This document shows, one piece after another, positions 11,828 to 34,850 of a stretch of DNA of 36,784 nucleotides. The notes under the pieces were generated by a model. That model was not told the origin of the DNA. It worked only from the letters and a program-made list of their open reading frames with translations, and made no database searches. The translations under genes were made by a program, and so were the position numbers. Position 1 is the first letter of the stretch; each line of letters opens with the position of its first letter. Source of the stretch: Myxococcaceae bacterium. GTDB taxonomy: Bacteria > Myxococcota > Myxococcia > Myxococcales > Myxococcaceae. Location: positions 1-36,784 of the forward strand of contig JAEUJQ010000003.1 of NCBI GenBank assembly GCA_016793095.1, written 5' to 3'.

Positions 11828-12862
11828 GTGGCGTGGAAGCCGAGACCGAGAGCCGACGTCGACGTGCGGAGCCTGCCGCTTCGTCCGATCCAGGGCTTTC
11901 TGTTGTCGCGGCTCGACGGGGCCAGTGACGTCGCGGCGCTCGCGCAGGTGACGGGCCTGCCGCTGGAGCAGGTGACGACGATGCTCGGCGAGCTCGTCTC
12001 TCTGGGCGCGGTCGAGCCGGAGCCGGGCGACGCGCCCCCGGCAGAGGGGCCTCCGCCGGCCCGCCAGACGCCGGAGCAGTTGGAGCCGCTGCCTGAGCTG
12101 CCGGAGACGGAGCCGCACCTGCAGGCGCAGCACGAGGCCTCGAGCGACGAGCCGCCGCCGGAGGCCGAGCCGGAGACTGGGACCCACCGCGCGCTCTTCG
12201 AGTCGGCCCTGCACGACAAGCCCGTCGAGGAGCGCGTCGCGCTCGCGCACACCGCGACGGAGCCCACGCTGAGCGCGCTCTGCTTCGACCCGCAGCCGAA
12301 GGTGGTGGTGGCGTTGATGGAGAACCCGAACATGGGCCTCCAGCAGGCGCGGCTCGTCGCGAGACACCACCGCACGACGCCAGGGCTCGAGGCGCTGGTG
12401 AGCCGGCCCACCTTCGCGAACGACGCCGCCGTTCGTCACTGGCTGGTGCGCAACCCGCAGCTCGCGCCGCCGCTCTTCAAGCGGCTGTGGCAGGCGCGGC
12501 CGCTCCACGAGCAGTATGTGCTGGTCATCTCCCGGGAGCTGCCGCAGACGTCGAAGCGCATCGCGACCGAGCTGTTGCGCGCGCGCTTCGCCAACGGGCC
12601 GTCCGAGGAGCGCGTCCAGCTCATCGTGAAGACCGAGGCCCGGTGCCTCACCCACCTCACCGGCATCCCCATCGACAGCCGCACCACGGCGCTGCTGTGC
12701 GGCCGCACCTACGGCTCGACGACGTTCGTGCAGAACCTGGCCCGCTGGAGCGCCGCGCCGCCCGCCCTCATCGCCCACCTCTTCAAGCAGGACGTGGTGC
12801 GCCGCTCGCCGCAGCTGCGGCTGTTGCTGCAGCGGCACCCGAACGCCCCACGCGAGCGGTAG
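11828..12862 (+). CDS. winged-helix-like plus HEAT/LRV-like repeat protein
   Basis: 344 residues from a GTG at 11828; no strong ribosome binding site is seen. Residues about 13-62 (LPLRPIQGFLLSRLDG ... LGELVSLGAVE) have the spacing of a winged-helix domain, a layout common in myxobacterial cytoplasmic proteins. A Pro/Glu-rich linker covers about 65-125. From about 130 onward come helical repeats such as ALAHTATEPTLSALCFDP and HWLVRNPQLAPPLFKRLW, similar to leucine-rich-variant or HEAT repeats. No signal peptide is present. A protein-interaction role, possibly regulatory, is inferred. The 3' end abuts a decayed copy of the ALITENGK gene on the opposite strand. Confidence 0.7.
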   Translation: MAWKPRPRADVDVRSLPLRPIQGFLLSRLDGASDVAALAQVTGLPLEQVTTMLGELVSLGAVEPEPGDAPPAEGPPPARQTPEQLEPLPELPETEPHLQAQHEASSDEPPPEAEPETGTHRALFESALHDKPVEERVALAHTATEPTLSALCFDPQPKVVVALMENPNMGLQQARLVARHHRTTPGLEALVSRPTFANDAAVRHWLVRNPQLAPPLFKRLWQARPLHEQYVLVISRELPQTSKRIATELLRARFANGPSEERVQLIVKTEARCLTHLTGIPIDSRTTALLCGRTYGSTTFVQNLARWSAAPPALIAHLFKQDVVRRSPQLRLLLQRHPNAPRER

Positions 12863-12865
12863 CCG

Positions 12866-12922
12866 TCACGGCGCGCGCTGCGTGCCGTTCCCGGTGATGA
12901 GCGCCTTCTTCGCCGTCGGCAT
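12866..12922 (-). pseudogene. truncated duplicate of the ALITENGK-repeat gene 3' end
   Basis: An 18-codon frame runs from an ATG at 12922 to a TGA at 12868-12866. It encodes one KKALITGNG unit followed by TQRAP, the same terminal residues (QRAP, stop) as the intact gene beginning 60 bp away. At DNA level, 12863-12884 repeats 12979-13000 almost perfectly, offset by 116 bp, which is not a multiple of three. It therefore looks like a leftover from tandem duplication or slippage rather than a working gene, although a tiny ORF cannot be excluded. Confidence 0.5.
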
Positions 12923-12981
12923 CCCCTCGCCGCTTCTGAGTGCTGCTGCGAGGCCACCTGGCGCCCGGAGAGGGGTGGCCG

Positions 12982-13227
12982 TCACGGCGCGCGCTGCTTG
13001 CCGTCGATGATGAGCTTCTTCTTCGCGGCTGGCTTCGCTTTGCCGTTCTCGGTGATGAGCGCCTTCTCGGTGGCCGCGCCCTTGCCGTTCTCGGTGATGA
13101 GCGCCTTCTCTGCGCCAGCGCCCTTGCCGTTCTCGGTGATGAGGGCCCTCTTCTCCTGCGCTGCGGCCGGCTCGCCGGCGAAGGCGGTGAGGCTCGCTCC
13201 GATGAGGCAGGTGATGAGGACTCGCAT
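12982..13227 (-). CDS. small secreted protein of ALITENGK repeats
   Basis: 81 residues from the ATG at 13227, with GGGAG 6 nt upstream. Residues 1-24 form a signal peptide (MRVLITCLIGASLTAFAGEP, then AAAQ). The mature part is three near-identical units centred on ALITENGK (residues 28-35, 42-49 and 56-63, each preceded by KR or EK), then a variant KLIIDGK unit and a QRAP end. Unit spacing is 14 residues. Basic residues before each unit could be processing sites, but that is conjecture. It is 43 bp downstream of the TPR/transglutaminase-fold lipoprotein on the same strand, so probably co-transcribed. I recognise no family. A multi-unit peptide precursor or a simple extracytoplasmic binding protein are both possible. 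Confidence 0.75.
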   Translation of the reverse strand: MRVLITCLIGASLTAFAGEPAAAQEKRALITENGKGAGAEKALITENGKGAATEKALITENGKAKPAAKKKLIIDGKQRAP

Positions 13228-13270
13228 GGCACGCTCCCGCCCGCAGCGTAGCCGACGCACCCACGGTCCG

Positions 13271-16200
13271 TCAGGGTGTCGCGCCGCCGGTGCCGCCGCC
13301 GTCCTTCACCAGCAACACATCACGGCCCTGCAGCAGGTCAGCTTCTCCAGCGAACTGGCCGAAGCGCTCGTACTCCTTCACCGGCACGCGGCTCTGCACC
13401 AGGCGCGCCTCTTCCTCGACGGTGATGACGCGACCCTGCTGCGTCTCCTTGCGCGTGAAGTGTCCCCACGGGCACTGGGTCTTCGCTTCGGCCAGCGGTT
13501 CCTTGAGCTGCCAGCCTTCGGGCACGGTCAACGTCACCAGCGCCTTCGTCGACTCGCTGGCCTCGATGAAGAGCGGCGTCACGCGCTGGCCCAGCACCAG
13601 GTACCGCCGGCCCAGGTTCCACGGGAAGGTGAGCGCGCCGAGCACCATCGTCCCCGCGCCCTCCTTGCGACCGAAGCGCCCTGCCTTGAACGCGTACTTC
13701 ACCCTCACCTGCGCGCCGCCCTCGTCCTTCTTCGTGTCGACGTCCACGGACTCGAGGTCGGCGCCTCCGAACATGCGTGACAGCGCCTGCTCGAGCGCCT
13801 GCCTGCGCTGCTCTGGTGAGAGCTGCTCGAGCGCCTCGGACAACTGCGCCGCCTCGTACCCGACATACAGCTCCTCCCCTTCGCCCGAGAGCGCGCCCTC
13901 GTCGTCCAGCGTCGCCTTCAGCTTCACCGTCTTCGAGGGGCGCTCGCTGTGCTTTGGCGTCGTCGTCTTCTCGAGCGGCCGGCCCGGCGCTGGCAGCAGG
14001 TACGCCTCCCGCTCGCCGAGCGCGAACTCGGGCAGCTCGCCGAACGGAGCGAAGCGCACCATCGGGTCGAGCCACACGGGCTGCCCGTCCACCAGCACGC
14101 GGACGCAGACGTACGGGAAGAGCGCCTCGCTGGGGAAGACGTACGGCGCCGGGTCGGCTGTGAAGCCGCGCACCGCCACCAGCCGCGCGTCGAAGCCGAG
14201 CGCCACCAGCGAGGCCTGCAGGAGCCAGGTGCGAGAGCCGCGGTCCTGCCCGACGGTGGACGCCGCCGACATGCCCAGCCCCGCGTCGCGGCCCGAGAGC
14301 TTCTTCATCACCGCGCCGTACACGGCCTTCACGGCGTCGAGGCCCTTCGCCTCACCAGCCGCCGTGCGCGCGAACACCTCGACCTCATGCGTCACCTGGC
14401 CGCGGTCGAGGAAGGCGTCGGCGTACGCGCGGAGCACCCCCTCGTTGCCGCGCTGCCCGACGCCGACGCTCACGAAGGGCAGCCACTCGTTGCCCGACGG
14501 CGGCCCCTGGGGCTCGGGGATGTACGGGGGCACGCGCTTCTCCTCGTGGAAGAAGACCTCCTTGTCTCCTTCGACCCGCACGGGCGCGACGTCAGCCAGG
14601 TTGTGCGCGTCGACGGCCAGCCCCGAGCCCTTCGGCGCGAGGACCGTGTAGGTGCTCCAGTTGTTCGGCTGGCGCGCGACCTGGAAGTAGAAGGCCGACG
14701 CGGTGAAGCCGGGCTGGCCGGGGCCACGCGGCGGGTGCGCGAGCAGGTACTCGTACTCGACGAGGTCTCCGACCTGCACGCCGGGGAGGCTGACGGCGTC
14801 TTTGCCCTCGATGTTCTCGGGTTCGAGGCTGGTGCCATCGGCCTTCAGCGTGCGCAGCTTCAGCACCACCGCGCCCTGCGGGAGCTGCACCTCGGCCACC
14901 TCCTGCACACCAGCCTGGTCGAGCGCCTTCTGGATGATGTGCACCCGGTCCACCTGCGAGCCGTCGGCGAAGCCCTCGATGGCGGCGGCGTCGAGCAGGT
15001 ACGCCGCGTTCGCGTCTTCGCTGCCTGGCGCGGCCTCGTACGCCTTCAGCGCGGCCTCGGTGGAGATGGCGTGCGCGTCGAGCAGCTCGCGGCCCGTCTT
15101 CGCGCGCTCCACCGCGCGGCGCAGCGGCAGGTCGGCGCCGTCGAGGGCCAGGGCCCGCTCGCGGGCGGCCAGCGCCTCCTTCTGCTTGCCCGCCTGGTCG
15201 AGCACGTCGGCGAGCTGCTTCACGAGCTGCGCGTTGCGTGGCCACACCGCGGCGACCCGCTCGAGGGTGGCGACCGCCTCGTCGTAGCGGCGCAGCGACA
15301 CGAGCGTGTTCGCCAGCGCGGTCGCGACCTGAAGCTGGCTCTCGTCGCGTGACAGCTGCGCCTTCCAGATTCCGACGACGGCGTCGAGGCGCCCGCGCGT
15401 GCGCTCGTGTTCCGCCTGGCGCCAGGGCGCGTTGGGGCAGTGCTTCGTCTTGCTCACGAGCAGGTCGGCGTCGGCGATGGCGTCACGGCGCCGGGCGAGG
15501 TCGTACTGAAGCAGCAGCGCCTCGCAGTGTCCTGGCAGCGCGGCCTCGGCTTCCCGTGCGGTGATGGCGGCCTGAGCCTCGAGGCCCATGGTGAGCTCGA
15601 TGCGCGACTGCAGGAGCGCCACGGCCGCGGCCGGCGGGGCGTGGCTCGCCCGCGCCTGTCGTACGAGCTCGAGGGCGTCGACGTGCCGCGCGTCGTCGAG
15701 GGCGAGCTGGGCCGTGAGCAGCCGCGCCGCGACCAGGTCCTTGTCCTTCGCGAGCGCCGCCTCGAGGTCGCGGGTCGCGCGGCCGCGTGCGACCTTCGGC
15801 GCGAGCGAGCGATCGCCGAGGTCGAGCTGGGCGCGGAGGAGGTGGACGAACGCGCCGTCGAGCTGAGGCGCGAGGGCGGCCAGCAGCGCACGGGCGCCGT
15901 CCCGGTCGCGGCCCATGCCGTCGCGCAGGGCAACCACGCGGGCGAGCGCGTCGGACGCCTCGTCGGCGAGGGCGGCGTGCACACTGGCCGCCGTCGGCAT
16001 CACCTCGCCGTCGTCCACCACGGTGACGCCGTCCCACGCGGTGGGCGCACCGGCTGCGGGCCGGAAGGTGAGAGCGGACGGACGGCCGTCGAGGCGCTGC
16101 AGGGCGAGCTGCAGGTGGCCAGCGCCGTCTTCGCGGGCCGCGCGCACCAACAGCCGGTGGGTGCCAGCGGACAGCTTCACCACCCGCGACGAGAGCGTCG

Positions 16201-17083
16201 GCGCCGGCCGCTGCCACGTCAGCCGCGTCAGCACGGTGGTGCCGTCGATGAGGGCGACGTGGTCCATCGCGGTGATGGTGCGCAAGACGAACCTCGCGCT
16301 CTCAGGCACGTCGACGTCGACACCGAAGAGGTAGCCGTCGCCGGACGCCGGCTCGCCCGAGAGCGTCAGCCGCCCGTCGGCGAAGGTGAAGGTCCGTGGC
16401 GTGAGGGCGCCGAAGGGCCCCGGGCTCGAGGTGTCGAGCCGCCCGGTCTGCTCGGCGGAGGTCGGCTCGCCCATGGACAGCACGTGCCAGGGGCTCGTCG
16501 GGCCGAGGACGGTGAGGGTGGTGGGCACGCCCATGTCCGAGAGCACCGCCTTCACGGTGGCGGCGTCTCCGCGGGTCTCGGCGATGGCGACGAGGGTGGC
16601 GCGCAGCAGGTGCGCCGCGTCGGGGTGTGGAGCAGCGTCGAGGGCGGCACGCGCTCGTTGGAGGATGAGGTCGTCGGTCTGCGCGGCCTCGGTCGCGTGG
16701 TCGAGGAGGAAGCGCGCGGCGACGGCGGCGAGTGGGTGACCGGGCTGACGCTCGAGCAGGTCGAGCGCAGTGGAGACGGACCTCTCGGTGCGCGCCTGCC
16801 GCTCCGCGAGCAGCACCTGCCCCCACAGCGCCCACGGGTCGCTCGCGTCCTTCTGGACGGCAGTGTCGAGGTGTGCGCGCGCCTTCTCGGCGTCGGAGGA
16901 CACGAAGAGGGCGTGCAGGCCGGCGAGGGCCCACGCGCGGGCCCTGGCGTCTCCGTCAGCGACGTCGGCGAGCGCGTCGTCGAGCGCCTCGGTGGGTCCG
17001 GGGACGCGCCGCGGGCAGCCGGTTGCCACGAGCAACACCAGCGACGTGAGCAGCGCGGTTCGCGAACGAAAGGCGGACGTCAT
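13271..17083 (-). CDS. lipoprotein with TPRs, DUF3857-like region and degenerate transglutaminase fold
   Basis: 1270 residues. The ATG at 17083 was chosen because it gives a clean lipoprotein signal (TALLTSLVLLVATGC, Cys23); there is no obvious Shine-Dalgarno. Residues about 30-650 are TPR-like helical repeats with a beta-rich insert near 240-370. A DUF3857-like beta region covers about 690-870 (VGDLVEYEYLLAHPPRGPG). It is followed by a transglutaminase-like core near 900-1020, where the usual Cys of GDCKD is Asp947 (VGQDRGSRTWLL). The usual His of HAWVEV is also absent (FPYVCVRV), while LDPM keeps the Asp. It is thus probably non-catalytic. A beta-rich C-terminus follows. The role is probably in periplasmic protein or glycan binding; the ALITENGK gene follows it directly. 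Confidence 0.85.
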   Translation of the reverse strand: MTSAFRSRTALLTSLVLLVATGCPRRVPGPTEALDDALADVADGDARARAWALAGLHALFVSSDAEKARAHLDTAVQKDASDPWALWGQVLLAERQARTERSVSTALDLLERQPGHPLAAVAARFLLDHATEAAQTDDLILQRARAALDAAPHPDAAHLLRATLVAIAETRGDAATVKAVLSDMGVPTTLTVLGPTSPWHVLSMGEPTSAEQTGRLDTSSPGPFGALTPRTFTFADGRLTLSGEPASGDGYLFGVDVDVPESARFVLRTITAMDHVALIDGTTVLTRLTWQRPAPTLSSRVVKLSAGTHRLLVRAAREDGAGHLQLALQRLDGRPSALTFRPAAGAPTAWDGVTVVDDGEVMPTAASVHAALADEASDALARVVALRDGMGRDRDGARALLAALAPQLDGAFVHLLRAQLDLGDRSLAPKVARGRATRDLEAALAKDKDLVAARLLTAQLALDDARHVDALELVRQARASHAPPAAAVALLQSRIELTMGLEAQAAITAREAEAALPGHCEALLLQYDLARRRDAIADADLLVSKTKHCPNAPWRQAEHERTRGRLDAVVGIWKAQLSRDESQLQVATALANTLVSLRRYDEAVATLERVAAVWPRNAQLVKQLADVLDQAGKQKEALAARERALALDGADLPLRRAVERAKTGRELLDAHAISTEAALKAYEAAPGSEDANAAYLLDAAAIEGFADGSQVDRVHIIQKALDQAGVQEVAEVQLPQGAVVLKLRTLKADGTSLEPENIEGKDAVSLPGVQVGDLVEYEYLLAHPPRGPGQPGFTASAFYFQVARQPNNWSTYTVLAPKGSGLAVDAHNLADVAPVRVEGDKEVFFHEEKRVPPYIPEPQGPPSGNEWLPFVSVGVGQRGNEGVLRAYADAFLDRGQVTHEVEVFARTAAGEAKGLDAVKAVYGAVMKKLSGRDAGLGMSAASTVGQDRGSRTWLLQASLVALGFDARLVAVRGFTADPAPYVFPSEALFPYVCVRVLVDGQPVWLDPMVRFAPFGELPEFALGEREAYLLPAPGRPLEKTTTPKHSERPSKTVKLKATLDDEGALSGEGEELYVGYEAAQLSEALEQLSPEQRRQALEQALSRMFGGADLESVDVDTKKDEGGAQVRVKYAFKAGRFGRKEGAGTMVLGALTFPWNLGRRYLVLGQRVTPLFIEASESTKALVTLTVPEGWQLKEPLAEAKTQCPWGHFTRKETQQGRVITVEEEARLVQSRVPVKEYERFGQFAGEADLLQGRDVLLVKDGGGTGGATP

Positions 17084-17163
17084 GCGGGCGACATAGCGCA
17101 GCCGTCTGGGGCCGCCGCGGTTTCTTGGGCAGTCCGATGACGCGAGTGCCGCGCAGCGCGAAA

Positions 17164-17273
17164 GCGACATGGCAGCTCGCCCGTGTGCCCCCGGCCACGA
17201 CGCGCGGCGCACTGGAGCCCGGCTGGCACAGCGGCGACATGGCAGGTCGTCCGTGTGCCTCACGCCACGAGCA
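17164..17273. repeat. imperfect 40-bp direct repeat, 70 bp apart
   Basis: GCGACATGGCAGCTCGCCCG... at 17164-17203 recurs as GCGACATGGCAGGTCGTCCG... at 17234-17273, with a handful of mismatches. The pair fills most of the 239-bp gap between two divergent genes (the TPR lipoprotein leftward and aldehyde dehydrogenase rightward). This is a location where regulator binding sites or small duplications are both plausible. Nothing else recognisable is in this gap. Confidence 0.55.
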
Positions 17274-17322
17274 GACATCCAGACATGCGCTCAGGCCCGC
17301 GACCCGTTACCGTGCCGCCACC

Positions 17323-22801: not shown

Positions 22802-22964
22802 GGCCGTGCCTCCGCGGGAGAGGCATTCAAGGGCCATGCCTCCCCGACGCGCTGGAATCGACGAGCACGGCCTGGCGGGAGACCGCAGGGGTTGCGCGAT
22901 CAACCGCTTGATGCCGTCGTGATGTGCGGGCAGACGTGAGGTGCTTCCGAACACGGAGGTCCTC

Positions 22965-24260
22965 ATGACTCGCCGCTGCGCCGCCACACTCTTGCTGACC
23001 GTCGTCGCCTTCTCGGCGCCGGCCCTCGCGCAGGTGGATGGCGGGGGCCCTTCGGCCTCCGATGCGGGAGACGTCCTCAGCGGGGGCGATGGCGGGGCGC
23101 TCGACTTCTCACGTGAGACGGAGCGCCTGGGCGCAGCGTCAGCGGCGGCCCTCGTCGGCGGACCAACGGTCGCGCCCTCGGCGTTCGTGCTCGGCGGCTA
23201 CGCCGAGGCCTTCTACCAGTGGAACTTCAACCAGCCGTCAAACCAGCTCACCGCGCTGCGCGGCTTCGACAACCGGCACAACACCTTCACGCTCGCGAAC
23301 GTGGCGCTCGATGCGCAGTGGGACTTCGAGGACGTGGTGGGCCGCGTCACGCTCCAGGTCGGCCACACCGCCGATTCGTACTACTCGGCCGAGCCATCGC
23401 GCGAAGGCGGAGCGGGCGTCAACGCGACGTCGGCCTCGCTGTGGAAGTTCGTGCAACAGGGCTTCGTCGGCTACCGCTTCAAGCCGCTGGGCCGAACGTT
23501 GCTCGTGCAGGGCGGCCTCTTCCTCTCCCCCATCGGACCGGAGGCCATGGCGGTGCGCGACAACTGGACCTGGTCGCGCTCCAACCTGTTCTTCGGGCTC
23601 CCGTACTACCACACGGGGGTGCGGGCGACGCTGGCGCTCTCGGGGGAGTGGGCTGTCACGCTCGCCGGCTACAACGGGTGGAACAGCGTCACCGACAACA
23701 ACGAGGGCAAGTCGGTGTCGGTGCAGGTGACGTACGCGAAGCCCGACGTCGTCGCGCTCAGCCTCCTCTACTTCGGCGGGGTCGAGCGTTCGACGGGGGC
23801 CCTCGAAGGCCAGCCGTGGCGACATCTCTTCGACGCGCACGTCACCTGGAGCGCGAGCTCACGGCTCTCGCTGCTCGCCCACGCGAACGGCGGCGTCGAG
23901 CCCAACCGGTTCGGCCTGTCGGCGTGGGTCGGTGGCGCCGCCTACGCCCGCTACCAGGTGCTGACGCAGCTCTTCCTCGTGGCCCGCGCTGACGCCTTCT
24001 TCGAGCACCGTGCGGCGAACGCAGAGGGCGTGGCGAGCAGCTTGTTCTGGCCCGTGTCGTCAGTCGGGTCCGGCACGCTCACGGTCGACTTCCGGCCCCA
24101 CCCGCGGGTGTCGGCGCGGCTCGAGCTTCGCCACGACCGCGCGTCGGGCAACGCCTGGTTCGCGGGGGCCGTCGAAGGAGACGGCTCCATCATGACACCG
24201 TGGCTGCCGAATCGACCGACGCAGACGACGTTGACGGTGGGAGTCACCAGCTGGTTCTGA
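22965..24260 (+). CDS. outer-membrane porin, BBP2/OmpL-like
   Basis: 431 residues from the ATG at 22965 (GGAGG, 5 nt spacing; an upstream ATG at 22941 would only add eight residues before the signal peptide). The signal peptide ends ALA and is followed by a VDGGG linker. Residues from about 70 form repeated beta-strands with the typical start GGYAEAFYQWNFNQPSN and NRHNTFTLANVALDAQWDF. Later strands run up to the terminal Phe (GVTSWF). This is the pattern of the OmpL-like beta-barrel porin-2 family. It would permit diffusion of small solutes across the outer membrane. No neighbouring transport gene hints at a substrate. Confidence 0.88.
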   Translation: MTRRCAATLLLTVVAFSAPALAQVDGGGPSASDAGDVLSGGDGGALDFSRETERLGAASAAALVGGPTVAPSAFVLGGYAEAFYQWNFNQPSNQLTALRGFDNRHNTFTLANVALDAQWDFEDVVGRVTLQVGHTADSYYSAEPSREGGAGVNATSASLWKFVQQGFVGYRFKPLGRTLLVQGGLFLSPIGPEAMAVRDNWTWSRSNLFFGLPYYHTGVRATLALSGEWAVTLAGYNGWNSVTDNNEGKSVSVQVTYAKPDVVALSLLYFGGVERSTGALEGQPWRHLFDAHVTWSASSRLSLLAHANGGVEPNRFGLSAWVGGAAYARYQVLTQLFLVARADAFFEHRAANAEGVASSLFWPVSSVGSGTLTVDFRPHPRVSARLELRHDRASGNAWFAGAVEGDGSIMTPWLPNRPTQTTLTVGVTSWF

Positions 24261-24293
24261 CGAGAAGCGCGAGGAGCCGATGTCGGCGCCGTC

Positions 24294-25103
24294 TCAGAAC
24301 GATGGGTCTGGCGAACGCTCGCACGGGCCGGCCAGGAACTCCCGTCGGTCGCTGTGCTTCACGATGACCTGTCGACGCTCGATCGAGAGCAGCTCCGCCC
24401 CCTGAACGACGTCTCCCACCGAGTACGTCTGCGTCTTGAGCGTGAGGCAGTCTTGAATCGAGGCGATGGACGGTTCCGGCCCGGTCGCGATCAAGGTCCC
24501 CACGAGTCCGAGCCGCAGAGACGAGCGGACCGGCGGCGCTTCAGGGTCCACGGCGGGAGGCCCGGGCTCGACGAGGCTGGCCTCCGAATCGGCGACCCGG
24601 ATGATCTCGAAGGCAAGCGCCGCGAGTCGGCGCGGGCGCGGGTCGAGCGCCTTCAGCGTGCCTGTGAACCAACTCGAGAGCGTGCTCCAGCCTGGCGAGG
24701 TCGCGAGCGTCTGAAGCGTGGCGTGCGGTTCGCCCTCTTCCGCCTCACGGCCGAACGAGTGCTGCTTCCCATCGCAGACCAGCGTGATGGACACTTTGCT
24801 CAGGGTGCGAACGGTGGGCCTCGGCAGCAGCGGGGGCGACCGCAGACCGCGGAGCAGTGTCTCACGCTCGGCGCTCGTCAGCACCCGGGACTGACTTTCG
24901 AACACGCTCCGGCTCGTCAGGGTGTCGTCCTGGAGCGCGAGCGCGGCACCGAACGCGCCGTGCGCAATCCCAATCCCCGCGGTGGCGCTGAGCGCCGTGG
25001 GGTCACCTCCACCAGGGCACCGCAGCGGGTCGCGCGCAGCGACCGACCACACCAGTCCGGAGAGCATCGCGAGCAGACCGATTGCGGCGAGGAGCGCGCG
25101 CAT
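24294..25103 (-). CDS. GspC-like periplasmic protein
   Basis: 269 residues. An N-terminal hydrophobic helix (residues 3-22, ALLAAIGLLAMLSGLVWSVA) is followed by a short periplasmic region. Residues 197-258 (LRLGLVGTLIATGPEPSIAS, then IQDCLTLKTQTYSVGDVVQG and AELLSIERRQVIVKHSDRRE) match the homology-region domain of GspC/PilP: LxGTxxxxPxxSxAxIxD... VGDxVxGA.LxxI.xxxVxxxxxxRxE.L. In type II secretion GspC links the inner-membrane platform to secretin GspD. The other secretion genes are not in this window, so it is an orphan. The middle part (about 75-160) is unassigned. No clear Shine-Dalgarno precedes the ATG at 25103. Confidence 0.8.
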   Translation of the reverse strand: MRALLAAIGLLAMLSGLVWSVAARDPLRCPGGGDPTALSATAGIGIAHGAFGAALALQDDTLTSRSVFESQSRVLTSAERETLLRGLRSPPLLPRPTVRTLSKVSITLVCDGKQHSFGREAEEGEPHATLQTLATSPGWSTLSSWFTGTLKALDPRPRRLAALAFEIIRVADSEASLVEPGPPAVDPEAPPVRSSLRLGLVGTLIATGPEPSIASIQDCLTLKTQTYSVGDVVQGAELLSIERRQVIVKHSDRREFLAGPCERSPDPSF

Positions 25104-26608: not shown

Positions 26609-27863
26609 CGTCGTCGATGACGAGCGACGAGGTCGCGTTGCCGGGCTGCTGCGGGAAGCTGGCCTCGGCGCGGAGCACGAGCGCGTCGAGCGCCTCCCCG
26701 TGGGGCAGCGTCTGGACCGTCGTGAACGTGGTGCTGGCGGCCGTGCGGAAGCGGACCTGGCCGCCGGACTCCTCGATGCGCAGATACCTCGGCCACGTTG
26801 TCGTCGGGCCCTGGGCCACGAACGAACCGGTGCCGCCATCCGAGAGCCGCCACGCCGCCACGAGGCCGCGCGAGTCCATGACCCATCGGAACGTCGGCGC
26901 GACCCCGCTCGCGGGCTGAAGTCCAATGAAGCCAGAGAAGTTGTCGGCGAGGTTCGGCTTGCCAGGCAGCTCGACGCTCACGCCACACCCCTGGAGCGGG
27001 AGCGCTGCGTTCGTCTGCGCTGAAGCCAGATCCGGCGACGTGTTGCGGCTCCTCACCGTGAGGTCGAGCGTGCCGGCCACGACCGCTCCGGTGAGCGTCC
27101 ACTGCGGCGCCCCCATCGTGAAGGAGTCGGTGAAGCCCGACCAGCAAGGGCGGCACATGGCCTGAGCGCTGCACGAGAAGCCAGCCGCGCAGCCGCCGTC
27201 CGTCGGACTGCACGACGTCGGGCATGAGGTCTGCTGGCCGGTGCAGGCGTAGGAGCCGCACGCGGTGCCGGCCGGCGCCACCACGCACCGGCCTCGCGAC
27301 GCGCTCAGGTTGCACACGTCGCAGGCTGCGGCGCACGAGTTCTCGCAACACACGCCATCAGCGCAGCTGAGCCCGCTCTGGCACGACGACGACGACGAAC
27401 ATGCGCCACCCTGGGGCGTTCCCGCGTCGACTGAGCCGCCACCGGTCGAACCACCACCGGTCGAACCACCACCGGTCGAACCACCACCGGTCGAGCCACC
27501 ACCCGTCGAGCCACCACCCGTCGAGCCGCCACCGGTCGAGCCGCCACCGGTCGAGCCGCCACCGGTCGAGCCCCCGCCGGTCGAGCCGCCGCCGGTCGAG
27601 CCGCCAGCCGTCGAGCCGCCACCCGTCGAGCCGCCACCGGTCGAGCCGCCACCGGTCGAGCCGCCGCCCGTCGAGCCGCCACCCGTCGAGCCACCGCCCT
27701 CACCGCCGGTTCGCACGCACTGCCCCTGCACGCAGGAGAAGCCGTCGGCACAATCACCCGCGGACACGCACGCGAAGGGAACGTCAACGAACGTCGGCGT
27801 GCGCTGACAGCCCCAACCCGCCAGCGTCACGGTCAGGCCGGCGAGCACGAAGGTGGACTTCAT
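26592..27863 (-). CDS. lipoprotein with (GGGST)n linker and Cys-rich region
   Basis: 423 residues; AGGGAG lies 4 nt upstream of the ATG. Lipobox GWGC (Cys19), then a small Cys module (CVSAGDCADGFSCVQGQC). A linker of about 18 GGGST units (27433-27700 in DNA) is followed by a Cys-rich module (residues about 155-230: CSSSSSCQSGLSCADGVCCE, CAAACDVCNLS). A beta-rich C-terminal part (about 235-423; FTDSFTMGAPQWTLTGAVV, WRLSDGGTGSF) resembles laminin-G/concanavalin-like sandwiches. It is likely surface-exposed, tethered by the flexible linker. Its ATG overlaps the stop of the upstream gene (ATGA, 27860-27863). No enzymatic motif is seen. Confidence 0.85.
   Translation of the reverse strand: MKSTFVLAGLTVTLAGWGCQRTPTFVDVPFACVSAGDCADGFSCVQGQCVRTGGEGGGSTGGGSTGGGSTGGGSTGGGSTGGGSTAGGSTGGGSTGGGSTGGGSTGGGSTGGGSTGGGSTGGGSTGGGSTGGGSTGGGSTGGGSVDAGTPQGGACSSSSSCQSGLSCADGVCCENSCAAACDVCNLSASRGRCVVAPAGTACGSYACTGQQTSCPTSCSPTDGGCAAGFSCSAQAMCRPCWSGFTDSFTMGAPQWTLTGAVVAGTLDLTVRSRNTSPDLASAQTNAALPLQGCGVSVELPGKPNLADNFSGFIGLQPASGVAPTFRWVMDSRGLVAAWRLSDGGTGSFVAQGPTTTWPRYLRIEESGGQVRFRTAASTTFTTVQTLPHGEALDALVLRAEASFPQQPGNATSSLVIDDVNLGP
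27433..27700. repeat. 15-bp tandem repeat encoding GGGST
   Basis: About 17-18 copies of a 15-bp unit, on the plus strand GAGCCGCCACCGGTC with synonymous variants such as GAACCACCACCGGTC, GAGCCACCACCCGTC and GAGCCCCCGCCGGTC. Copies differ mainly at third positions, which indicates selection for the GGGST peptide or old duplication. Being a multiple of 3 it can expand or contract without frameshift, so lineage length differences are likely. Confidence 0.95.
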
Positions 27864-28843: not shown

Positions 28844-28926
28844 CGCGACAGCATAGCGCCGCCGCTCGCCGACGCGAGTCGCTGGACTTGACCGCTCGCC
28901 TTCCTGTCTCGAAAGTCCCGTGTCTC

Positions 28927-30459
28927 GTGGCTTACCTGTCGTGGCACCCTGGACAGCGCGTCGGGCAGTACACGCTCTCTCGCGTGGTCGCCTCAGGTGG
29001 CATGGCGGAGGTGTGGGAGGCTCGCCTCGATGGACCGGTCGGCTTCGCCAAGCGGGTCGCGCTGAAGCGCCTGATGCCGTCGATGGCCGAGGAGCCCCAG
29101 TTCCTCAACCTGTTCCTCGACGAGGCGCGCCTCATGGCCGCCCTCACCCACCCGCACATCTGTCAGGTCATCGAGCTCGGGCAGCACGAAGGTACCTGGT
29201 GGGTCGCGATGGAGTTCCTCGCAGGCCACACGGCCTACCAGCTCATGCGCGAGACGGTGAAGCGGGGCTGGCGGCTGCCGCTCGAGCTCGCCGTGTTGAT
29301 CGGTCGCGACACGGCCGAGGCCCTCGCCTACGCGCACGCGAAGCAGGACGAGAGCGGCCAGTCACTGGGCATCATCCACCGCGACGTGTCACCGCAGAAC
29401 ATCATGGTGACGTACGAGGGCGTGGTGAAGCTGGTGGACTTCGGCATCGCGAAGGCGGCGACACGCACCGTGCACACCGAGACCGGCCAGCTGCGCGGGA
29501 AGATGGCGTACATGCCGCCAGAGCAGGCACGCGGCGAGACGGTGGACAGCCGGGCGGACCAGTTCTCGCTGGGCGCGACCCTGTTCGAGCTGGCCACCCA
29601 CACCCGGCTCTACGGCAACCTGAAGGAGATGGACCTGTTCCGCGAGGTCGCGACCAACGCGGAGGCCCTGCCCCGGGCCCGCTCGCGCCTGCCAGAGCTG
29701 CCCGAGGCCCTCGACGACATTCTCGCGCGGATGCTCGAGCGTGAGCCTGACAAGCGCTTCCCGACGATGACGGCGGTGCGTGACGCGCTGACCCAGTTCC
29801 TCGCCGAGAACTCGACCTCCCTGCCCACGACCGAGGCGCTCGCGCGGTACATGACGTCGTGCTTCCCACCAGAGGAGCGACCCGCGCTCACGACGTTGAG
29901 CGGAGGGTCTCCAGCCTCGTTCCGCAGCTCCCACGACGTGCTGGCGACCCACCGGCGGAAGCGGTGGCTGATGGGTGGGCTCGTGGCCGTGCTGGCCGTC
30001 GGGGTCGCGGGTGCAGTGCTGGCAACCAGACCCGCCCCGCCGGCAGACGACCCGGCCGCGATGGAGGCCCGACCCGACGCCTCCGTCGTGGCGACGGCAG
30101 CGGCACCAGACGTCCCTCCTGAAGACGCTGGAGCGGCGAGCCTGGCCCCTGACGTGCTGGACGACGCGGGCGTCGAGCTCGCCGACGAGGAAGACACGCT
30201 GTCGCCCATCGCCCCGGGCAAGCGCCCTTCGCCGAAGGCCGTGGTGAAGAAGAAGCCGGGCTCGCTCTCCCTGCAGACGACTCCGTGGACCATCGTCTAC
30301 CTGGGCAAGAAGAACCTCGGTGAGACCCCCCTCGTGAACGTGCCCCTGCCACCGGGGCTCCACCGGCTGCGCCTGGTGAACGAAGAGAAGCGCCTGTCGA
30401 CGACCATCGAAGTGGAGATCAAGTCCGGCGCGGTGACGACGAAGCGCCTCAAGCTGTAG
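28927..30459 (+). CDS. Ser/Thr protein kinase with PEGA-like C-terminus
   Basis: 510 residues from GTG at 28927; an in-frame TTG at 28888 is an alternative. The kinase domain (about 15-275) is complete: glycine loop VASGGMAEV, VALK with Lys47, Glu66, catalytic loop HRDVSPQN (Asp153, Asn158), DFG 171-173 and PPEQA in place of APE. One membrane helix near residues 340-360 (WLMGGLVAVLAVGVAGAVLA) is followed by a Pro/Ala/Asp-rich spacer and a PEGA-like domain (LQTTPWTIVYLGKKNLGETP). Kinase inside the cytoplasm with an extracytoplasmic sensor tail is the expected topology. Substrates are unknown. It is divergent from the TPR-like gene and ends at a bidirectional terminator. Confidence 0.92.
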   Translation: MAYLSWHPGQRVGQYTLSRVVASGGMAEVWEARLDGPVGFAKRVALKRLMPSMAEEPQFLNLFLDEARLMAALTHPHICQVIELGQHEGTWWVAMEFLAGHTAYQLMRETVKRGWRLPLELAVLIGRDTAEALAYAHAKQDESGQSLGIIHRDVSPQNIMVTYEGVVKLVDFGIAKAATRTVHTETGQLRGKMAYMPPEQARGETVDSRADQFSLGATLFELATHTRLYGNLKEMDLFREVATNAEALPRARSRLPELPEALDDILARMLEREPDKRFPTMTAVRDALTQFLAENSTSLPTTEALARYMTSCFPPEERPALTTLSGGSPASFRSSHDVLATHRRKRWLMGGLVAVLAVGVAGAVLATRPAPPADDPAAMEARPDASVVATAAAPDVPPEDAGAASLAPDVLDDAGVELADEEDTLSPIAPGKRPSPKAVVKKKPGSLSLQTTPWTIVYLGKKNLGETPLVNVPLPPGLHRLRLVNEEKRLSTTIEVEIKSGAVTTKRLKL

Positions 30460-34536: not shown

Positions 34537-34667
34537 GACTCGCAGTGTGACACGGGCTGGGCGCTGGGGCCGCAGGCTTCTCCGCGCAATCCGGCCCGTC
34601 CGGCGCACGGCGAACGGCCGACGACGACGGGGCACGTCCACGCCTTCCACCGGTCTGTCTTGCTCAT
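34533..34667 (-). CDS. possible 44-residue leader peptide coupled to the following gene
   Basis: ATG at 34667, starting MSKTDRWKAWTC and rich in Cys, Gly and Pro. Its TGA overlaps the ATG of the 1029-residue repeat protein (ATGA, 34533-34536), and it is itself overlapped at its start by the stop of the next upstream mini-ORF. It is the last of a series of copies of a short repeated start (see the DNA repeat). There is no strong Shine-Dalgarno, so translation is unproven; the repeat may simply happen to carry ATG codons. Confidence 0.3.
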   Translation of the reverse strand: MSKTDRWKAWTCPVVVGRSPCAGRAGLRGEACGPSAQPVSHCES

Positions 34668-34850
34668 GGCACGAACGGCGCCCGGTCCCTCACCACCGAC
34701 GACGATCGGCACGTCCACGCCTTCCGCGCGGTCTTGCTCATGGCACGAACGGCCCCGGTCCCTCACCGGTACGTCCACGCCTTCCGCGCGGTCCTGCTCA
34801 TGGCACGAACGGCCCCGGTCCCTCACCACCGACGACGCCCGGTACGTCCA
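34613..34850. repeat. tandem 60-77 bp repeat upstream of the Ig-fold protein
   Basis: The unit contains CACGTCCACGCCTTCC, then GCTCATGGCACGAACGG and GGTCCCTCACC. Copies begin at 34633, 34710 and 34770, with a partial one at 34843; an inserted ACCGACGACGA segment accounts for the length differences. It fills most of the 387-bp gap (34537-34923) between the leftward Ig-fold gene and rightward lipoprotein. Apart from the mini-ORFs on the minus strand nothing else is seen here. Confidence 0.85.
34664..34741 (-). CDS. possible 25-residue mini-ORF in the repeat array
   Basis: ATG at 34741, starting MSKTARKAWTC, stop TGA at 34664 overlapping the following ATG (ATGA, 34664-34667). The next unit upstream (ATG at 34801, MSRTARKAWTYR, stop 34763) is 12 residues. 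So three consecutive units share the same first dozen codons. Each starts after the conserved GGGGCCGTTCGTGCC context. Translation is uncertain and there is no function to suggest. Confidence 0.25.
   Translation of the reverse strand: MSKTARKAWTCRSSSVVRDRAPFVP

What the first reader, a model, noticed from the sequence alone, without database searches (positions are those of the whole stretch)
12982..13227. Secreted mini-protein made of ALITENGK repeats
After a signal peptide the protein is three nearly identical 14-residue units (core ALITENGK, each with a basic or acidic/basic pair before it) plus a variant unit. This modular form is like multi-copy peptide precursors, or a repeat binding surface. 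I know of no family with this core. The Shine-Dalgarno and signal peptide are good, so it is likely expressed.
Basis: partly seen in the sequence, partly recalled or inferred. Interest (0 to 1): 0.7.

Follow-up and report, generated by a model that had tools for sequence, protein, structure and literature searches.

The report
Orphan secreted repeat mini-protein
A bacterial genome carries a short gene that looks protein-coding and whose product is probably exported and built of three near-identical 14-residue units, but no relative was found in the collections searched, so it is best read as an ordinary lineage-specific orphan protein of unproven function.

Summary
Minus strand 13227-12982 encodes 81 residues: a signal-like N-terminus, three 14-residue units with core ALITENGK, and a variant fourth unit. 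It is very probably a real gene: its codon score is at the 94th percentile of 136 windows from neighbouring genes, and 0 of 680 off-frame windows reach it. It starts 43 bp after a DUF3857 protein gene on the same strand, with a Shine-Dalgarno-like GGGAG.

No relative was found: no Pfam, NCBIfam or PHROGs match up to E 1; none in plasmids, phages, viral or genome contigs; at E<=0.005 only its own genome of 195 in the phylum. Gene order around it differs in same-genus genomes.

The locus has thus changed by local duplication.

Best reading: a lineage-specific cationic exported repeat protein, perhaps binding an anionic envelope partner (inference). The multi-copy peptide-precursor idea has no support beyond the repeats themselves. 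Interest is low.

The parts
12982..13227 (-). 81-aa ORF: signal-like N-terminus plus repeat region; stop TGA at 12984-12982
   Evidence: coding score 0.866, at the 94th percentile of 136 real-gene windows and above all 680 off-frame windows
13159..13227 (-). signal-peptide-like segment, residues 1-23; possible cleavage after AFA (17) or AAA (23)
   Evidence: mean Kyte-Doolittle 2.18 over residues 3-17; cleavage sites inferred by the AxA rule, recalled
13027..13152 (-). three 42-bp/14-residue units, core ALITENGK
12985..13026 (-). variant fourth unit AKKKLIIDGKQRAP
12862..12922 (-). decayed copy of the gene's 3' end (reads MPTAKKALITGNGTQRAP then stop), probably not translated
   Evidence: 48 of 61 columns identical to 12978-13035; local alignment score 90 versus at most 41 in 1000 base shuffles; longer alignment 109 versus at most 80 in 2000 dinucleotide shuffles
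13228..13270 (-). 43-bp gap to the upstream same-strand gene, holding Shine-Dalgarno-like GGGAG
13271..17278 (-). upstream gene on the same strand: DUF3857 protein with sub-threshold TPR and DUF3858 matches; possible operon partner (start codon not settled)
   Evidence: Pfam PF12969 E 9.5e-7, above its cut-off; TPR_16 and DUF3858 below theirs; homologues in 59 of 60 genomes, own included

Best explanation
A real but lineage-specific gene for a small exported protein. Inferred: the Sec signal is removed, leaving a 58-64 residue cationic chain (pI 9.8-9.9, no Cys, no aromatic residue), whose repeated units (ALIT-ENGK, strand-like then turn-like by eye) act together as a flexible multivalent binder of an anionic partner in the periplasm or envelope. 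Shown: the frame is coding by codon statistics, the units are near-identical copies of one 42-bp DNA unit, and the locus has also duplicated its own 3' end. The gene has therefore changed by local duplication; descent from a known family was not detected.
For: Coding score at the 94th percentile of 136 real-gene windows, and 0 of 680 off-frame windows as high; the signal part alone (0.447) and the repeat part (1.042) both favour this frame over the other two on its strand. In the core, units 1-2 (9 codons) and 2-3 (8 codons) differ by one synonymous codon each and no non-synonymous one. The indel between the two 3'-end copies is 3 nt, so it keeps the frame. Ribosome-site-like GGGAG, and 43 bp to an upstream same-strand gene. 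Mature part: 13 K+R versus 7 or 8 D+E.
Against: No relative in any genome searched, so conservation gives no support. No like gene in the 31 loci fetched around the two neighbouring genes in other genomes. Over the whole 14 codons, non-synonymous differences outnumber synonymous ones (units 1-2: 4 against 2; 2-3: 4 against 1; 1-3: 5 against 3), and the core counts are too few for a selection test: young repeats look alike without selection. The structure model is of low confidence. No promoter- or terminator-like site was found around the gene. No ligand evidence exists; binding is inferred from charge and repetition.
Confidence: 0.4

Rival explanations
1. A young or transient orphan frame with no selected function: a tandem DNA repeat in GC-rich DNA that happens to extend a short exported frame.
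For: No relative in 194 other genomes of the phylum at E<=0.005; a decayed 3'-end copy shows an unstable locus; other tandem arrays occur in the same window; non-synonymous differences outnumber synonymous ones over whole units.
Against: Codon statistics are those of established genes, with a ribosome-site-like sequence at the expected place.
Confidence: 0.35
2. Fast-evolving member of an existing family whose relatives are too diverged for sequence search.
For: Short, low-complexity repeat proteins lose detectable similarity quickly (general knowledge). The last unit's LIIDGKQRAP resembles stretches such as LTIDGKK, ELDGKQRALP and VIIDGKPTG in three longer frames of the same genome (L054, L055, L056), two of which look PEGA-like to me (recalled, not tested).
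Against: No Pfam, NCBIfam or PHROGs match up to E 1; the likeness covers about 7-10 residues, and the DNA matches (E 2.2e-4 to 0.009) head a list of 41 non-self matches at E<=10, as chance in GC-rich DNA would give.
Confidence: 0.19
3. Multi-copy peptide precursor: proteases release several ALITENGK-type peptides as signals or antimicrobials.
For: Three near-identical units after an export-like signal.
Against: Pairs before the cores differ (KR, EK, EK, KK); no maturation enzyme recognised among the scanned frames; an export signal is unlike most bacterial modified-peptide leaders (recalled).
Confidence: 0.06

Closest known systems
Small lineage-specific (orphan) secreted repeat proteins, as a loose kind (recalled)
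   Same: Short, export-like signal, repeats from tandem DNA duplication, no detectable relatives
   Different: The core pattern was found in 2 of 146 other class genomes, once each and inside long unrelated frames
MORN_2 / YwqK-type repeats with an NGK turn (recalled)
   Same: An NGK stretch in a repeated unit
   Different: Period about 22-24 and aromatic residues there (recalled); here period 14 and no aromatic residue in the mature part, no Pfam match
PEGA domain
   Same: LIIDGK of the last unit resembles short stretches in longer frames that look PEGA-like (label recalled)
   Different: No Pfam match for this protein; only one short stretch
Multi-core modified-peptide precursors (recalled)
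   Same: Repeated core units
   Different: Export-like signal, no uniform pair before the units, no maturation enzyme recognised nearby

Membership tests
MORN_2 repeat proteins | Profile match to the family model | tested here: not met
   P0001 has 0 Pfam families at E<=1
PEGA domain | Profile match to PF08308 | tested here: not met
   P0001 has 0 Pfam families at E<=1
Multi-copy peptide precursor | Same processing site before each unit | tested here: not met
   KR, EK, EK, KK; sites of unknown proteases cannot be excluded
Multi-copy peptide precursor | Maturation or transport genes beside it | tested here: inconclusive
   22 other window frames scanned, none recognised as such; a D-Ala-D-Ala ligase with the ATP-grasp fold lies 12 kb away and sub-cut-off NCBIfam matches include a C39-peptidase model (on the TPR part) and a radical-SAM-associated lipoprotein model; small frames and the rest of the genome not scanned
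Multi-copy peptide precursor | Peptides released in the supernatant | not testable with these tools
   needs mass spectrometry
Sec-exported protein | Hydrophobic signal with cleavage site | tested here: inconclusive
   mean hydropathy 2.18 over residues 3-17; no signal predictor available; the basic n-region is only MR

The most novel reading that the evidence does not exclude
The three ALITENGK units are cut out of the exported chain and act as a small family of peptide signals or toxins peculiar to this lineage, with unit number changing by tandem duplication.
Probability: 0.05. Interest if true: 0.6.

Novelty: new member of a known kind. Interest (0 to 1): 0.2.

Why it matters
If expressed, it is a small clear example of how a repeat-protein gene is built from a 42-bp unit, with a rearrangement still visible beside it as a decayed 3'-end copy. 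It does not by itself open a new question: orphan small secreted proteins are common (general knowledge) and no function can be read from this one.

Tried and rejected
Relatives by sequence: of 60 genomes, 42 gave something at E<=1, own included, the best other at E 0.0144. In the class, five other genomes matched at E 0.014-0.039; the printed translations of four of the five (L004, L072, L073, L075) show no ALIT core and no repeat, and LIT.NG is in none of the five in six frames; not taken as relatives. Further own-genome matches had E 0.17 and 2.4. Two exact core-pattern hits elsewhere (L076, L077) are single copies in 836-codon frames, rejected. The best PDB sequence match was a coiled-coil M protein at E 4, rejected as chance.

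Transglutaminase-substrate idea: the upstream DUF3857 protein might cross-link a Gln- and Lys-bearing chain, but Pfam lists no transglutaminase domain for it at E<=1, and where I would expect the catalytic Cys (recalled) the two rows my pattern caught of 19 loci tried (L023, L028) read GQDRGSR. Rejected.

Terminator or RNA: no promoter- or terminator-like site; the stem after the stop folds no better than shuffles (z +1.43, 190 of 200 as good); no Rfam match in 12700-13500.

Is the stretch between the two 3'-end copies also a decayed unit? Its alignment to units 1-3 is no better than shuffles (665 of 2000 reach it); not claimed.

Literature: 'ALITENGK' anywhere in text, 0 papers. A five-term search (at least four terms) listed one paper on lichen peptides; I saw the listing only and did not use it.

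Full report
Observation. The minus strand 13227-12985 encodes 81 residues, with TGA at 12984-12982. After a hydrophobic stretch (mean Kyte-Doolittle 2.18 over residues 3-17) come three 14-residue units that share ALITENGK, then AKKKLIIDGKQRAP. The DNA repeat has period 42. No call names the organism.

Is it a gene? I trained codon frequencies on eight window frames: seven with Pfam matches, and 11828-12862, which has no Pfam match below E 0.01 but has homologues in two other same-genus genomes. Leave-one-out, 136 real windows of 81 codons scored 0.633 on average (minimum 0.064); the best of 680 off-frame windows scored 0.478, so the two sets overlap at the edge. This ORF scores 0.866, above every off-frame window; its two sister frames score -1.13 and -1.22, the best frame on the other strand 0.195. 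It begins 43 bp after the stop of a long same-strand gene with a DUF3857 match, and GGGAG precedes the ATG by 6 nt. I take it as coding, possibly co-transcribed with that gene (inference; no promoter-like site was found in 12800-13400).

Relatives. No family matched up to E 1 in Pfam, NCBIfam or PHROGs. No match in plasmids or phages up to E 1. No confirmed relative in viral contigs or genome contigs (32 and 180 pattern hits, none confirmed at E<=1e-3; a single protein query reaches close relatives only). In whole genomes, 1 of 195 in the phylum matched at E<=0.005, the own one; in the listed rows with many candidates, only part were scored (for example 28 of 42). At E<=0.05, 6 of 147 in the class matched, own included; the other five have 32-44% identity at E 0.014-0.039, and I do not take them as relatives. 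The exact core pattern occurs in 3 of 147 class genomes: four times here, and once each in two others inside 836-codon frames. The same-genus genomes are far apart (74-79% identity of the DUF3857 protein's C-terminus in five of six), so the gene's age cannot be told.

Synteny. The end of the DUF3857 gene could be read with downstream DNA in five of six other same-genus genomes (L024-L028; 293 to 1500 bp each); in the sixth, G002, the match is cut by the contig end. No like gene follows in those five. The convergent neighbour 11828-12862 has a homologue in two of six other genus genomes, with different genes after it. A six-frame scan for LIT.NG of all 31 loci fetched around these two genes in other genomes found none. 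In the genomes where they could be read the two neighbours are not adjacent, so the mini-gene sits at a junction not shared with them.

Local duplication. The gene's end (12978-13035) recurs at 12862-12922 with 48 of 61 columns identical and one 3-nt indel, both with QRAP-stop. The alignment scores 90 against at most 41 in 1000 base shuffles; a longer one 109 against at most 80 in 2000 dinucleotide shuffles. It runs on past the stop into the end of the convergent neighbour gene. The downstream copy reads ALITGNG, nearer the unit consensus than the LIIDG of the fourth unit. Of the codons that differ between the copies, six change the residue and one does not (my count from the strings), as expected if one copy is no longer translated. 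Whether the stretch between the copies is also a decayed unit cannot be shown.

Function. The mature chain has 13 basic and 7-8 acidic residues, pI 9.8-9.9, no cysteine and no aromatic residue. A single-sequence model has mean pLDDT 57 and pTM 0.18, a helix at residues 2-12, and two 2-residue bridges at 73-74 and 77-78 in the fourth unit, none in the three ALITENGK units; this neither shows nor excludes structure. A flexible cationic multivalent binder in the envelope is my leading guess; a frame without selected function is nearly as likely. The precursor idea lacks a uniform pair before the units, and no maturation gene was recognised among the frames scanned.

Verdict. A correct observation of a probably real, lineage-specific small exported repeat protein; ordinary in kind, function unproven.

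Noticed in passing
window 12862-12922: Decayed copy of the mini-gene's 3' end between it and the convergent neighbour gene.
   Followed up: yes
window 27433-27692: 15-bp tandem repeat, 17.3 copies, 93% matches, in a region with several overlapping long frames.
   Followed up: no
window 34618-34827: Two overlapping tandem arrays of 74 and 60 bp, two copies each, 88% and 96% matches.
   Followed up: no
window 28888-30459: Protein kinase domain with a C-terminal PEGA domain match above its cut-off.
   Followed up: no
window 13271-17278: DUF3857 protein without a Pfam transglutaminase match; possibly a non-catalytic version.
   Followed up: partly
window 22941-25103: BBP2-type porin frame beside a sub-cut-off type II secretion protein C match on the other strand.
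   Followed up: no
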